Of a stretch of DNA of 30,079 nucleotides, positions 2,132 through 23,114 are shown one piece after another. How positions within the stretch are numbered: position 1 is the stretch's first letter; the number at the start of each line of letters is the position of its first letter. The stretch is from the IMG/VR virus record IMGVR_UViG_3300040806_000817, positions 1 to 30,079 of that record; one strand, 5' to 3'. The translations under genes and the position numbers were made by a program. This DNA comes from a virus. The notes beneath the pieces were generated by a model. It was not told the origin of the DNA and searched no databases. It worked only from the letters and a program-made list of their open reading frames with translations.

Positions 2132-2190
2132 TTGCGAATCACTTAACTAACTTACTCTTACAATATAGCAAATTCATTAGCTTTTGTCAA
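2132..2190 (-). promoter_or_regulatory. sigma70-type promoter with GTGATTCGCAA leader element
   Basis: TTGACA (2190-2185), 17-bp spacer, extended -10 TGC-TATATT (2167-2162). The predicted start is near 2155, giving a 38-nt leader. The leader holds AGTGATTCGCAA (2143-2132) directly before the ribosome binding site GAGAGGT. It is one of six copies of this arrangement in the window. Confidence 0.85.
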
Positions 2191-2196
2191 GCACTT

Positions 2197-2562
2197 TTAT
2201 CGTCTTTTTCCAGTATTTTCATCTTTTTGTTCGGCCGCACTTAATACGACCAGACCACCTTTGTTATATGCTTGACCAATTACAACATTACCACGATATT
2301 TATGTGGTTCTTTGACGAAGCCATTACCAACTTTATCTGATGTTGGAATGGCAGAGGAGCAAGGAATTGAACCCTGTCTTACGGGGTTGGAGTCCGTTGT
2401 GCTACCGTAACACCTCTCCTCTTTAGGAACATACCCCATCTTCTTCAAATATTTCTGATGCTCTGCTTGAGCAACTTTCAACTTTGCGCTGGTCTTCTTT
2501 GCCTTGCGCTTTTTCTGATTCGTTGTGGTGTAAAACACCGGCAACATATGCATACCACTCAT
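2197..2562 (-). CDS. conserved phage protein interrupted in frame by a tRNA-Trp gene
   Basis: A 121-residue ORF whose two ends resemble one family of small phage proteins. The N-terminus reads MLPVFYTTTNQKKRK followed by a basic helix with an AEH..YLKK motif. The C-terminus has a HKYRGNVVIGQAYNKGG region, where relatives carry a Y.G..IIGI..MHK pattern. Codons 47-72 between them are the sequence of a complete tRNA-Trp (2349-2422) read as protein. The start at 2562 overlaps the kdsA stop as ATGA, and GCGAGG lies 8 bases upstream. Processing of the tRNA would destroy the message, so protein and tRNA compete for transcripts. Family resemblance is from memory; function unknown. Confidence 0.6.
   Translation of the reverse strand: MSGMHMLPVFYTTTNQKKRKAKKTSAKLKVAQAEHQKYLKKMGYVPKEERCYGSTTDSNPVRQGSIPCSSAIPTSDKVGNGFVKEPHKYRGNVVIGQAYNKGGLVVLSAAEQKDENTGKRR
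2349..2422 (-). tRNA. tRNA-Trp (CCA), inside a protein gene
   Basis: A 74-nt cloverleaf on the minus strand. The acceptor AGAGGAG/CTCCTCT is perfect, the D-stem is GTGT/GCAC, the anticodon loop CTCCAAC (anticodon CCA), the T-arm CAGGG-TTCAATT-CCTTG, with discriminator G and an encoded CCA. The anticodon stem has one A-C pair at its top. It lies wholly inside the ORF at 2197-2562 on the same strand, and about 2 kb from the main tRNA cluster. Confidence 0.92.
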
Positions 2563-3320
2563 AATATATGCCTCGCTATCTGACTTACTACATTCTCAAA
2601 ATCCATCAGTCTGACCATATTAGGCCCATCTGATGGTGCATTGTCTGGGTCTGGATGAACTTCAATAAAAAAGTTTTTCACGCCCATTGCGGCACCTGCT
2701 CTTGCTAGTCCCGGGACAAAATCTCTGTTACCACCTGAAGATCCGCCATTGCCGCCGGGCTTCTGGACTGCATGAGTAACATCAAAGACGATATCATGGT
2801 CAATGTTATTAAGCATATAATCAAGGCCTGTGAAATCAACGACCAGAGTGTTATATCCAAAACTGGTACCTCTCTCTGTGACCCAAACTTCTTTGGCGCC
2901 TTCTGTCTTAGTCAGAACACCATGCATATCCCACGGTGCTAGAAACTGACCCTTCTTAATATTTACAATCTTATCGGTCTTCGATGCGGCGACTACTAGA
3001 TCGGTCTGCCTGCAAAGAAAAGCGGGTATCTGTATTACATCAATATAATCTAGTTCACTAATAATTTGAACTTGTTCGACAGTATGTACATCGGTCAAAG
3101 TCTGGACATCATATGCATTCTTGATAAAACTGAATGCGGTCATGGTTTCATTGAAGCCGATGCCTCGTTTACCACTCATGCTAGAGCGATTGGCTTTATC
3201 AAAACTAGCCTTGAAGATATATTCAAAGCCATATTTATCACAAACCCGTTTACACTCTTCAGCGATAATTGAAGATGATACTGCATTTTCGTGTTGGCAT
3301 GGTCCTGCTATAATTCTCAT
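2559..3320 (-). CDS. kdsA: KDO-8-phosphate synthase (metal-dependent type)
   Basis: Condenses phosphoenolpyruvate with arabinose-5-phosphate to make KDO-8-phosphate, the precursor of the KDO of lipopolysaccharide. The 253 residues include the hallmark KASFDKANRSS, then QIPAFLCRQTDL, KKGQFLAPWDM and TERGTSFGYN, all known from bacterial KdsA. The N-terminal AGPC carries the Cys that marks the metal-dependent class, and the EVHPDP and SDGP motifs supply further ligands. It is somewhat shorter than typical bacterial KdsA (about 280). It sits in a coupled string of small genes (ATGA overlaps on both sides). This is a host-type metabolic gene in a phage, implying a Gram-negative host. Confidence 0.93.
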   Translation of the reverse strand: MRIIAGPCQHENAVSSSIIAEECKRVCDKYGFEYIFKASFDKANRSSMSGKRGIGFNETMTAFSFIKNAYDVQTLTDVHTVEQVQIISELDYIDVIQIPAFLCRQTDLVVAASKTDKIVNIKKGQFLAPWDMHGVLTKTEGAKEVWVTERGTSFGYNTLVVDFTGLDYMLNNIDHDIVFDVTHAVQKPGGNGGSSGGNRDFVPGLARAGAAMGVKNFFIEVHPDPDNAPSDGPNMVRLMDFENVVSQIARHIL

Positions 3321-4178: not shown

Positions 4179-4236
4179 TTGCGAATCACTCTATCAACTT
4201 ACTTGTTAAATATAGCAGGATTTATGGAATTGTCAA
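4179..4236 (-). promoter_or_regulatory. sigma70-type promoter with GTGATTCGCAA leader element
   Basis: TTGACA (4236-4231), 16-bp spacer, extended -10 TGC-TATATT (4214-4209). The leader contains AGTGATTCGCAA (4190-4179) followed at once by GAGAGGT. It drives the run of small genes that leads into kdsA. The base order of spacer end, leader and ribosome site closely matches the copy at 6163-6219. Confidence 0.85.
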
Positions 4237-19581: not shown

Positions 19582-20766
19582 TTAGATCAAATTGGACTGG
19601 ACAAAATCGGGCTCACCCTGTGGTTCTTGCAGTTCAGTCTCACAGTCAGCATCAGCATCGACCTTCGTATAAAGGTCACGGAATGATGACTTGGTATCCT
19701 CATCAAACCGATTGATACACATTTCAATGGCGGTCATACGATCACCAAAGATTGAGTAAGCCTTGGCAATATGAACCAGACGCCGTGTCGAAATGATCTC
19801 ATCAACACCACCATCATAGTAGGTCTTGCGGATGATATCGGCCCAGTCAACCAACAACTCTTCAAAGTTGTCCATGACATCTACACCAAGATCATCAAAC
19901 ACCATGCCGAGCATCTTTTTCTCGACCGATACTGGTGGGTACTCTTGCTCAATGGTGATTGGAAAACGCTCTAGAAACGCCTCATTCATCACATTAGTAC
20001 CGATGAAACGGCCATCGTCAGAACCCTTACCTTTGGTATTGGCTGTTGCGATGACCGTAAAGCCAGAAGCAGGCTTAATAAACTCGCCAGTCTTCTTGAT
20101 AAAGTAGCCTTTCCCTTCAAGGATAGACTGAAGACACATAACCTTTGCTGGATTTGCAAGGTCAAGTTCATCTAGCAGGGCAACTGCGCCACGCTCCATG
20201 GCTTTAATAATAGGGCCTTTGAAGAATTTTGTTTCTCCGTTGACCAAGCGAAAACCACCAATCAAATCGTCTTCATCGGTTTCAACAGTGAAATTGATCC
20301 GAATGACTTCACGCTTCAACTGGGCGCAGGCTTGTTCAATACCGAATGTCTTACCGTTACCAGAGAGACCAGTAACATAGACAGGATAAAACATACCCGA
20401 CTTGATAATCTTTTTAAGTTTGTTATGATGACCGAATGGTACAAACAGAGGATCATTCTCAGGAACTAGGTTCTCAGTGAATGAGTCTGTTTGCACATTT
20501 AGGTCATTAACTATCGGAGCGGGCTGGAGTGCAACTTCTGCCTCAGGAACAGCGGGCATCACAGGAGTGGGCGATACAGCACCAGTAGTCGGCAACTTGT
20601 AAAGACCACGACCTACACGATAGTCATCATTATGAAGCAACCAAATCGGGCGCTTCAAACCATTTGATTTGGAAATCTCAAGGGCTTGGGCCCGTGTTAG
20701 AGTGTCACCAAATTCTTTGATGGCAATCTCAACAAAGGCTTGCTGGTTCTTATTCAACTTTTTCAT
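19582..20766 (-). CDS. cobS: CobS-like AAA+ ATPase
   Basis: A 394-residue MoxR/CobS-type ATPase. The N-terminal 120 residues contain a small helical domain and a Pro/Val-rich linker. The ATPase core has Walker A GLSGNGKT near 136-143, Walker B LLDELDLA near 195, the ATANTKGKGSDDGRF sensor-1 region near 240 and an RFPITIE segment near 265, as in CobS of aerobic cobaltochelatase. The start at 20766 follows GAGAGGTGAAATT; the ATG 15 bases earlier is part of that site. The CobT-like gene lies just upstream. Phages lack the cobalt-binding CobN subunit in this window, so chelatase function is not shown; a general AAA-VWA remodelling role is possible. Confidence 0.88.
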   Translation of the reverse strand: MKKLNKNQQAFVEIAIKEFGDTLTRAQALEISKSNGLKRPIWLLHNDDYRVGRGLYKLPTTGAVSPTPVMPAVPEAEVALQPAPIVNDLNVQTDSFTENLVPENDPLFVPFGHHNKLKKIIKSGMFYPVYVTGLSGNGKTFGIEQACAQLKREVIRINFTVETDEDDLIGGFRLVNGETKFFKGPIIKAMERGAVALLDELDLANPAKVMCLQSILEGKGYFIKKTGEFIKPASGFTVIATANTKGKGSDDGRFIGTNVMNEAFLERFPITIEQEYPPVSVEKKMLGMVFDDLGVDVMDNFEELLVDWADIIRKTYYDGGVDEIISTRRLVHIAKAYSIFGDRMTAIEMCINRFDEDTKSSFRDLYTKVDADADCETELQEPQGEPDFVQSNLI

Positions 20767-20780
20767 AATTTCACCTCTCA

Positions 20781-20838
20781 TTGCGAATCACTTTTCTCAC
20801 TACCTTGCTATCCTAGCAAATTGGAACCCATTTGTCAA
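20781..20838 (-). promoter_or_regulatory. sigma70-type promoter with GTGATTCGCAA leader element
   Basis: TTGACA (20838-20833), 17-bp spacer, extended -10 TGC-TAGGAT (20815-20810). The leader carries AAGTGATTCGCAA (20793-20781) followed by TGAGAGGTG, then the cobS-like start. The -10 is weaker than in the other copies. Confidence 0.78.
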
Positions 20839-20843
20839 GTCTT

Positions 20844-23114
20844 TTATGCTACGATATCAATAAATTTTGACAACATAATGCGGCTCGTTTTACGACCAGA
20901 GTTTGCTTTCTTGAAGGCAGTACGGATCACTGCTTTAGACGCATCATCAGCAACTTCAATTGCACCATTAGATGTCGCCAAATTCTTACCACCAAGAACA
21001 CCAAAGTAAGCACTATAACCATATTCTGGGATCAAACAGAACTTATCTTTTTTCATATTGTCCCAGAGTTGTTCCCGCTGTTGCCAATCAAGATCAGAAG
21101 TTGGAATCTCCCGCATTGCTTGTGGCTTGCGTGATGGAAGAATATGAAAGCCAATCACATTAGAACCCGTATGCTCACGGAGCATTTTAAGAAGTTGTGG
21201 AGTAGCAGGCTTTTTGTTGTCAAACCGATACCGCTTCTTTAGGACAGGATTTGTAATATAACATAGCGTTTTAGCTTCCCAGTAACCTCGAAAAGACAAT
21301 CGCTTTGTACATTTCTGGCCAGTGTCTTGACCATAAGAATTTTCATATGTTGACTGATAATCAAGAGCATGGCTTGCACCATCTGAAAGAAACACGGTGT
21401 TTACAATGTCAAGTCGATAGTTATTTTTGAAAATGTCATGGAGTACAAACGCTGACAGAATGGCATCATCAAGAGGAGTACCACCGAGCCACATTGAATG
21501 AGGAATATTGTAATATTCCGTATAAGGATCATAACGATTATCCCAGTAATTACCGACTGCGATAATACCCGAAGCCATAGTCTGAAATTCCGTGCGGCTC
21601 ATTTTACTTGAGAACAATTCTAGTAGCCGAAATTCATCTTGAAGACTAGCATCATTAATGGCGAAAAGTTGATGATTGATAAACTTATCGTGACTATCAC
21701 CTTTGCCGCGGCTAGCAAACTTATCACTAAAGGCATAAACCTCAAATGGGATTTGAACCTGCTTGCAAAACATTACAAGATTCAACAACTGGTCAATGGT
21801 GTGTTTCAACTGATCATTCATAGAACCAGACCAGTCAACAAACATCATCAAGCCATGACTCTTACCTTCAGGCACCACAGTCATTTTCTTGAATACGTCA
21901 TCACTGAACATATAGTTATTCATTTTGAGGGTATCAAGAACACCAGTTTTTGAAACAGTAGCCCGCTTATATTCAGCGGCTTTTTTCTTCATCTCAAATT
22001 CTTTGACCAAATAGTTAATAGTCTTTTTGTTGTTGATTTGAAACTGCTTAAACTTCTTCTGACCAAAACTTATAGCATCTTCATATTCATCAAACTCTGC
22101 AAGAACTTTCTTATAATCAACAATACGGTCAGTATAGAGGTTCTTTTTGAGATTGAGATTGATGTTTACAAACGTGGTATTCGGATCGCCACCAAATTCT
22201 TTGGTGATATTATCTGAAAGATTTTTGTCGGTGATTGATTCGGGACCAGCCCAGTCAGTGCCACCTTCATGTCCACTTGAGGTATCAGGTTTTTGCTCAC
22301 CTGATGTGTCTAGATCATCTTTGGATGAGGCACCAGAGCCGTTTTGATTATTTAGGTCGAACTGATCATCTTTTTCTGAAGTTCTCTCATAAGGGCTGGT
22401 TTCCTCTTCATCATCGCCTTCTGACGCCATGTTAGTCTCTGGTCGTATGTTCTTATCAGAACCGTATTCGCTACCATCGGAAGATTCTTCTTCATTACCG
22501 TAGTCCTCTGATTGCATTTGAGCCATAGCTTGAGATATTGCTTCCTGCTCTTGCTCTTGCTCTTCTACTGCTTTACCATAGAGTCGCTTGGCAATATCAA
22601 CTACTTCTTCAAAGGTTTCAACCTTCTCAATCTCACGGATCCAAGCCTTCTCTTCTTGATCGAACTGAACACCGACAGTTTGTCCGCACTTGAAGAACAC
22701 ATTAAGACGGTCGATCAGTTTGAAACTATTTATCTCATTCTCATCTTTACCGAAGAAACCATCAGCAAGCATTTTCTTATAAGATTGAATAAAGGGCTTA
22801 CGCAGACCAGGGTAACGGCGCTGGATCAGTTTTTCGATCCGAGCATCTTCTACAACATTCAGAAAAGACTGAAATCCATTACCACCTTCTTTGGCGGCGG
22901 TCATCCACTCTTCACCATCAGTATAGAGAGCATGGGCAACTTCGTGGCCGACCAAGTGATCATAGGTATAATTCTGCATGTCATCCCAAAGTGGGAGCGT
23001 CAGAATACGATCTTTTACGTTGAATGATGCGGTCTGGGTATTCTGGTGTACTACTGTAATATTTTCAGTAGCAAGCAGACGAGCCAGAACTTCTTTAGAC
23101 TGAATATTTACCAT
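20844..23114 (-). CDS. cobT: CobT-like protein with HExxH and VWA domains
   Basis: A 756-residue partner of the CobS-like ATPase. The N-terminal part has a zinc motif HEVAH at 57-61 with NVVEDARIE about 25 residues later, which looks like a gluzincin-type metallopeptidase site. The middle (about 190-310) is acidic, Gln/Ser-rich low complexity. The C-terminal half holds a von Willebrand A domain whose metal site DWSGSM is near 420. This matches CobT-like proteins of marine T4-like phages. The ATG at 23114 directly follows the leader element GTGATTCGCAA, with the ribosome site GAGAGG before that element, the reverse of the other leaders. Confidence 0.88.
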   Translation of the reverse strand: MVNIQSKEVLARLLATENITVVHQNTQTASFNVKDRILTLPLWDDMQNYTYDHLVGHEVAHALYTDGEEWMTAAKEGGNGFQSFLNVVEDARIEKLIQRRYPGLRKPFIQSYKKMLADGFFGKDENEINSFKLIDRLNVFFKCGQTVGVQFDQEEKAWIREIEKVETFEEVVDIAKRLYGKAVEEQEQEQEAISQAMAQMQSEDYGNEEESSDGSEYGSDKNIRPETNMASEGDDEEETSPYERTSEKDDQFDLNNQNGSGASSKDDLDTSGEQKPDTSSGHEGGTDWAGPESITDKNLSDNITKEFGGDPNTTFVNINLNLKKNLYTDRIVDYKKVLAEFDEYEDAISFGQKKFKQFQINNKKTINYLVKEFEMKKKAAEYKRATVSKTGVLDTLKMNNYMFSDDVFKKMTVVPEGKSHGLMMFVDWSGSMNDQLKHTIDQLLNLVMFCKQVQIPFEVYAFSDKFASRGKGDSHDKFINHQLFAINDASLQDEFRLLELFSSKMSRTEFQTMASGIIAVGNYWDNRYDPYTEYYNIPHSMWLGGTPLDDAILSAFVLHDIFKNNYRLDIVNTVFLSDGASHALDYQSTYENSYGQDTGQKCTKRLSFRGYWEAKTLCYITNPVLKKRYRFDNKKPATPQLLKMLREHTGSNVIGFHILPSRKPQAMREIPTSDLDWQQREQLWDNMKKDKFCLIPEYGYSAYFGVLGGKNLATSNGAIEVADDASKAVIRTAFKKANSGRKTSRIMLSKFIDIVA

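What the first reader, a model, noticed from the sequence alone, without database searches (positions are those of the whole stretch)
2197..2562. A complete tRNA-Trp gene sits in frame inside a protein gene
The sequence shows an intact tRNA-Trp (CCA anticodon, encoded CCA end) wholly inside a 121-codon ORF on the same strand, with no stop in the tRNA. The protein on each side resembles the two ends of one phage protein family (recognised from memory), so a tRNA seems to have inserted while keeping the frame. The ORF start overlaps kdsA as ATGA. RNase P cutting would destroy the message, so a transcript gives either tRNA or protein. Either the gene is being lost, or this is a dual-use locus.
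Basis: partly seen in the sequence, partly recalled or inferred. Interest (0 to 1): 0.75.

Follow-up and report, generated by a model that had tools for sequence, protein, structure and literature searches.

The report
tRNA genes nested inside phage protein gene
In a widespread family of marine viruses of bacteria, one small protein gene repeatedly carries one, two or three complete transfer-RNA genes inside its own coding frame, so the same DNA is kept by selection both as protein code and as tRNA.

Summary
A complete tRNA-Trp (2422-2349, minus strand, encoded CCA) lies in frame inside a 121-codon ORF (2562-2197). It is not a one-off. Among 153 distinct coding sequences of this unnamed phage protein family, 103 hold one to three sense, in-frame tRNAs in the linker between two conserved blocks: Trp, Arg, Pro, Ala, Met and Thr, in twelve combinations. 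Cultured methylophage Melnitz has it too; its deposited record shows the protein but omits the tRNA. Both products are under selection. The flanking blocks evolve as protein (median dN/dS 0.13-0.18). The tRNA part has about 2- to 24-fold fewer synonymous changes than the flanks, with many paired compensatory changes. In a scan using only the N-terminal block, all 65 loci with the C-terminal block in place kept it in the same ORF; 63 of them had a tRNA between. Nearly identical tRNA-Trp genes are read in different frames in two relatives, with flanking indels restoring the frame. So the gene is not being lost; it is a dual-use locus. Translation through the tRNA is strongly inferred; excision by RNase P, and the balance between the two products, are untested. 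I found no earlier description.

The parts
2197..2562 (-). Host ORF, 121 codons, member of an unnamed phage protein family (related members match phrog_27048, unknown function)
2434..2562 (-). Conserved N block (codons 1-43: MSGMHMLPVFYTTTNQKKRK...HQKYLKKMG), with a predicted helix at residues 26-41
   Evidence: alignment; dN/dS; AlphaFold2
2349..2422 (-). tRNA-Trp (anticodon CCA), 74 nt, wholly inside the ORF, coding for residues 47 to about 71
   Evidence: covariation
2349..2351 (-). Encoded 3' CCA of the tRNA (every distinct nested tRNA examined encodes CCA)
2200..2298 (-). Conserved C block (residues 89-121: YRGNVVIGQAYNKGGLVVLS..GKRR), downstream of the tRNA in the same frame. In the window there is no ATG/GTG/TTG between the tRNA and this block.
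2571..2574 (-). Shine-Dalgarno-like GAGG, 8 nt before the ATG
   Evidence: read directly
2559..3320 (-). Upstream kdsA-like gene (DAHP synthetase I family) whose stop overlaps the ORF start (ATGA)
4209..4236 (-). Extended -10 sigma70-like promoter, the nearest strong match upstream on this strand; probably drives the operon that ends with this ORF
   Evidence: consensus match only
2162..2190 (-). Second promoter of the same type just after the ORF, facing the next gene

Best explanation
This is a dual-product gene. One transcript carries a small conserved phage protein whose two conserved blocks are joined by a tolerant, probably disordered linker; the linker DNA is at the same time one or more working tRNA genes. 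When ribosomes translate the message they read through the tRNA as ordinary codons (in the window residues 47 to about 71) and make the protein. On other copies the tRNA folds, and host RNase P and 3' nucleases cut out a tRNA that already carries its CCA end, which destroys that copy as a message. Both products are maintained by selection. Shown by sequence: the tRNA fold is conserved, the frame is conserved, and both protein blocks are under purifying selection. Inferred: translation straight through the tRNA, excision by RNase P, and one transcript giving one product or the other. Unknown: what the protein does and whether the balance is regulated.
For: Recurrence: 103 of 153 distinct CDSs have 1-3 nested sense tRNAs of six isotypes, all in the linker. 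Frame: in a scan by the N block alone, 67 distinct loci gave 63 with tRNA plus C block in one ORF, 2 in frame without tRNA, 1 with the downstream part replaced, 1 cut by the contig end. There are 24 distinct linker lengths, all multiples of 3 in intact ORFs. Protein selection in tRNA-bearing genes: median dN/dS 0.13-0.15 (N block) and 0.15-0.18 (C block); 22 of 103, the window's type among them, have no ATG/GTG/TTG between tRNA and C block. tRNA selection: synonymous divergence in the tRNA is 0.015-0.12 against 0.11-0.55 in the flanks; covariation Trp 53, Pro 61, Arg 23 both-side cells, far above shuffles and slid controls; all encode CCA. Natural test: L108 and L052 hold nearly identical tRNA-Trp (70 of 74 nt) read in different frames, with flanking indels that restore the C-block frame. 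Frame kept when a tRNA decays or is deleted: L168, L185. The linker is the lowest-confidence part of the model.
Against: No expression data: neither a processed tRNA nor the protein has been seen. The window's tRNA has an A.C mismatch in the anticodon stem shared by half of the Trp set, and a modest 48.5-bit score. 58 of 103 genes have an ATG after the tRNA that could start a separate C-terminal peptide. The tree has few columns, so event counts are rough. Most loci are metagenome contigs.
Confidence: 0.85

Rival explanations
1. The gene is decaying: a tRNA landed in it, the protein no longer matters, and the open frame is a leftover.
For: Some linkers show tRNA decay or loss (L168, L185), so turnover does occur.
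Against: Purifying selection on both blocks in tRNA-bearing genes; frame kept in 65 of 65 loci with both blocks in place and across 103 distinct genes; compensated frameshifts (L108 vs L052).
Confidence: 0.03
2. Two separate short proteins flank a tRNA; the single ORF is an accident of annotation.
For: Many Arg-type genes have an ATG just after the tRNA; the two C-terminal types can swap behind the same tRNAs.
Against: tRNA-less relatives encode N and C blocks in one uninterrupted ORF; the frame is kept despite 24 linker lengths; 22 of 103, including the window type, have no standard start after the tRNA.
Confidence: 0.05
3. The tRNA fold is not a tRNA but an mRNA element (an RNase P or synthetase decoy controlling this protein), and no usable tRNA is made.
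For: Cutting there would switch the protein off; tRNA-like folds are used as mRNA controls elsewhere (general knowledge).
Against: Six isotypes, tandem arrays with 2-9 nt gaps, CCA encoded in all, full cloverleaf covariation. Only 3 of 103 have another tRNA within 3 kb. In Melnitz this is the only tRNA-Trp counted (PMC9004378).
Confidence: 0.05
4. Ribosomes skip the tRNA (bypassing), or the tRNA is excised and the message halves are rejoined, so the tRNA is never translated.
For: T4-like phages are known for gene 60 bypassing and for RNA ligases (general knowledge).
Against: Neither would need a stop-free frame through the tRNA nor a total length divisible by 3, yet both hold throughout. Exact removal of a 74-, 76- or 77-nt tRNA would put the rest out of frame (arithmetic on lengths).
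Confidence: 0.02

Closest known systems
tRNA genes overlapping or inside protein genes in animal mitochondria (e.g. trnS2 predicted within nad1 of Paratomella rubra, PMC5431833)
   Same: A tRNA predicted wholly within a protein-coding gene, suggested there to be simultaneous coding.
   Different: Single cases attributed to genome reduction; that tRNA departs from the cloverleaf. Here: canonical tRNAs, six isotypes, up to three in tandem, one phage protein family, in genomes of about 140 kb, with selection measured on both products.
Bacterial mixed tRNA-mRNA transcripts such as secG-leuU or the tRNA-tufB operon of E. coli (general knowledge)
   Same: tRNA and mRNA share a transcript and processing must free the tRNA.
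   Different: There the tRNA lies between reading frames, so cutting leaves the messages intact; here it lies inside one reading frame.
Phage tRNA genes and tRNA clusters (T4-like phages, cyanophages, the other Melnitz tRNAs)
   Same: Phage-encoded tRNAs with encoded CCA.
   Different: Those are free-standing or clustered; nested ones usually have no other tRNA within 3 kb (3 of 103 do).
phrog_27048 (unknown function)
   Same: 19 of 58 aligned family members match it.
   Different: No function known; the window's own protein does not match it at the threshold used.

Membership tests
tRNA-Trp | Cloverleaf fold with CCA anticodon | tested here: met
   ARAGORN; Rfam 48.5 bits
tRNA-Trp | Stems kept by compensatory change in relatives | tested here: met
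   97.6% of cells paired, 10 pairs with both-side changes, 0/500 shuffles reach the covariation score; one mismatched pair in half the set
tRNA-Trp | Processed, aminoacylated and used in translation | not testable with these tools
   Needs RNA from infected cells
Unnamed N-block/C-block phage protein family | N block and C block in one ORF | tested here: met
Unnamed N-block/C-block phage protein family | Purifying selection as protein in tRNA-bearing members | tested here: met
Pseudogene | Relaxed selection, stops or frameshifts | tested here: not met
Free-standing phage tRNA cluster | tRNA outside coding frames, near other tRNAs | tested here: not met
   in the window the nearest other tRNAs are about 2 kb away at 50-295

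The most novel reading that the evidence does not exclude
The nesting is itself a control device: ribosome traffic on the message decides whether a transcript becomes protein or tRNA, so that falling translation automatically releases more tRNA, and the lysine/arginine-rich protein may act on RNA. Different phages load the same cassette with whichever tRNA they need.
Probability: 0.2. Interest if true: 0.95.

Novelty: categorically new. Interest (0 to 1): 0.88.

Why it matters
It shows that working tRNA genes can serve, repeatedly and interchangeably, as in-frame linker code of a conserved protein, something annotation rules exclude (the deposited Melnitz record keeps the CDS and omits the tRNA). 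It gives a natural system, with one cultured phage, for asking how a cell divides one RNA between translation and tRNA processing. It also suggests that other nested tRNAs may have been removed from annotations.

Tried and rejected
Clean insertion model (family contiguous without codons 47-72): not exactly; near tRNA-less relatives have another linker of equal length. tRNA remnants in tRNA-less linkers: only L009/L010 show one, a 15-nt match to the anticodon arm; codon-shuffled controls give 0-2 hits at the same threshold, so only suggestive. Origin from a tRNA cluster that the gene wrapped around: other tRNAs lie within 3 kb in only 3 of 103 nested cases. Protein function by profile: Pfam Ribosomal_S8 is weak and below its cut-off; DUF1289 matches one member; the window's phrog_12024 match is E=0.007 only. 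AlphaFold2 gave pLDDT 64.7 and pTM 0.29, so no fold search was run. A genome-contig scan found one truncated relative. Literature searches found no report of in-frame nested tRNAs in a phage gene; subscription papers are not held. The L001/L002/L041 C-block lines printed compare unaligned sequences and are ignored.

Full report
WHAT WAS CLAIMED AND WHAT IS THERE. ARAGORN finds tRNA-Trp(cca) at 2422-2349 minus and Rfam's tRNA model agrees at 48.5 bits, cut-off 29. The ORF 2562-2197 minus has no stop and starts in an ATGA overlap with a kdsA-like gene, with GAGG 8 nt before the ATG. The tRNA encodes its own CCA. The window is a 30-kb virus record; a longer contig with an identical ORF, probably the same phage, is in IMG/VR (L001, 35 kb).

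THE NEIGHBOURHOOD IN RELATED PHAGES. A protein search of viral contigs gave 31 relatives. L002-L008 (73-76% identical) carry the same nested tRNA-Trp. L009-L016 (54-57%) are full-length and of the same length but have no tRNA; their linker is different. The four cultured Melnitz methylophages match over the whole protein; in the one examined, ARAGORN finds tRNA-Trp at 3195-3268 of L032, inside annotated CDS 124. The Melnitz paper counts four tRNAs in every isolate, genes 59, 125, 147 and 153 (PMC9004378); a term search found no mention of overlap with CDS 124. The deposited record lists CDS 124 and 126 and no tRNA 125.

IT IS A RECURRENT ARCHITECTURE. Profile scans and a scripted survey gave 153 distinct coding sequences with both conserved blocks; 103 contain nested tRNAs. 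Types: Trp, Arg(TCT), Pro(TGG), Ala(TGC), Thr(TGT), Arg+Pro, Arg+Met, Arg+Ala, Ala+Pro, Met+Pro, Pro+Thr and Arg+Met+Pro (the last in L192). All are sense, all lie in the linker, and tandem tRNAs are separated by 2-9 nt. Rfam scores of representative nested tRNAs are 50-78 bits apart from the decayed L168 at 34.8. Two kinds of C block occur, ending ..VIGQAYNKGG..TGKRR or ..IGIAQMHKSN..MRR, and tRNA-Arg, Pro and Ala are found in front of both.

CONTROLS AGAINST BIAS. Searching with the whole protein could favour intact frames, so I searched with the N block alone (44 aa). Of 67 distinct loci, 63 have a tRNA followed by the C block in the same ORF, 2 are in frame without a tRNA, one (L250) has other coding sequence after the tRNA, and one runs off its contig. 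That query lies near the Arg/Pro/Ala group, so it tests that group most directly. In the wider set one locus (L190) shows a frame break, within the N block upstream of the tRNAs. Outside this family none of 45 distinct free-standing tRNAs in the same loci is spanned by a same-strand ORF of 100 aa or more.

SELECTION ON THE PROTEIN. In tRNA-bearing genes the median dN/dS is 0.15 (Trp group) and 0.13 (other group) for the N block, and 0.18 and 0.15 for the C block, no weaker than in most tRNA-less comparisons. In 22 of 103 genes, the window's type among them, no ATG, GTG or TTG lies between the tRNA and the C block (window read), so the C block must be reached by translation through the tRNA unless an unusual start is used. 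The tRNA-coded residues themselves are little constrained as protein: pN/pS in the frame used is 0.5-1.4.

SELECTION ON THE tRNA. Synonymous divergence falls from 0.11-0.55 in the blocks to 0.015-0.12 in the tRNA, the usual mark of a second function in coding DNA. Stems are kept by paired changes: Trp 97.6% of cells paired and covariation score 0.495 against at most 0.135 for slid controls; Pro 99.0% and 0.567 against 0.140; Arg 99.7% and 0.229 against 0.071. Between the window and L002 the third acceptor pair changes from A-U to G-C, altering amino acids on both sides (E to G and S to P). All distinct nested tRNAs end in encoded CCA.

NATURAL EXPERIMENTS. L108 and L052 have almost the same tRNA-Trp (70 of 74 nt) but read it in different frames; indels before and after the tRNA restore the frame of the C block. 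L168 carries a decayed Arg-type tRNA, and L185 has lost a tRNA-Ala by deletion, leaving its 3' end; both keep the frame. The protein frame is therefore maintained whether or not the tRNA is intact. On a poorly resolved tree (81 columns) presence or absence changes at least 8 times and the tRNA set at least 39 times; this shows turnover, not exact numbers.

HOW IT PROBABLY WORKS. The ORF is the last gene before a new promoter and is probably transcribed with kdsA from a promoter near 4236 (consensus only). A ribosome reads through the tRNA as codons. AlphaFold2 predicts one confident helix in the N block and the lowest confidence across the tRNA-coded stretch, which fits a tolerant linker; the overall model is weak. 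A message not covered by ribosomes can fold the tRNA, and RNase P with 3' nucleases would release it, ending that message. That step and the either/or outcome are inference from general knowledge of tRNA processing. Bypassing, or excision with rejoining, is unlikely: neither needs a stop-free frame, and exact removal of 74, 76 or 77 nt would break the frame.

COMPARISON AND NOVELTY. tRNAs predicted within protein genes are reported for animal mitochondria (PMC5431833), as isolated overlaps in compact genomes, one with a degenerate fold. Bacterial tRNA-mRNA operons keep the tRNA outside the reading frames (general knowledge). I found no description of conserved, interchangeable, in-frame tRNA cassettes in a phage or bacterial protein gene; many subscription papers were not searchable. 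I therefore rate it categorically new, with the mitochondrial overlaps as the nearest precedent. If those overlaps are taken as the same kind, it would be a new variant.

Noticed in passing
window 2190, 4236, 6219, 6827 (minus strand); similar DNA at 20762-20847: A repeated extended -10 sigma70-like promoter segment (TTGACA - 16/17 nt with TG - TATATT or TACATT) precedes several gene groups, probably early promoters.
   Followed up: partly
L029 5159, L030 402, L031 702: In these relatives a free tRNA-Gly begins at the last base of the family ORF's stop codon, a one-base overlap just downstream rather than nesting.
   Followed up: partly
L073 1564-1986 and L088 3001-3423: The linker here holds a cysteine-rich insert instead of a tRNA; one family member matches DUF1289. 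A free-standing tRNA-Trp lies downstream in both loci.
   Followed up: no
L009/L010 linker: A 15-nt stretch AGTGATTCCAAACCA matches the tRNA-Trp anticodon arm of relatives exactly, possibly a remnant of a lost tRNA.
   Followed up: partly
GenBank MZ577095-MZ577098 (Melnitz): The tRNA-Trp counted as gene 125 in the paper is missing from the deposited features, which jump from CDS 124 to 126 (seen in the two records examined, MZ577097 and MZ577098).
   Followed up: yes
L086, L191, L238, L239, L255, L267: tRNA types common in front of one C-block type also occur in front of the other, suggesting C-terminal domain swaps at the tRNA.
   Followed up: partly
L250 2001-2360: N block plus tRNA-Arg lead into an unrelated C-terminal sequence; the usual C block lies about 580 nt further on in another ORF.
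   Followed up: no
L286 (Kordiimonadaceae MAG contig JABIPV010000318.1): A contig binned to a bacterium ends inside a family ORF that holds a nested tRNA-Pro; probably phage DNA.
   Followed up: no
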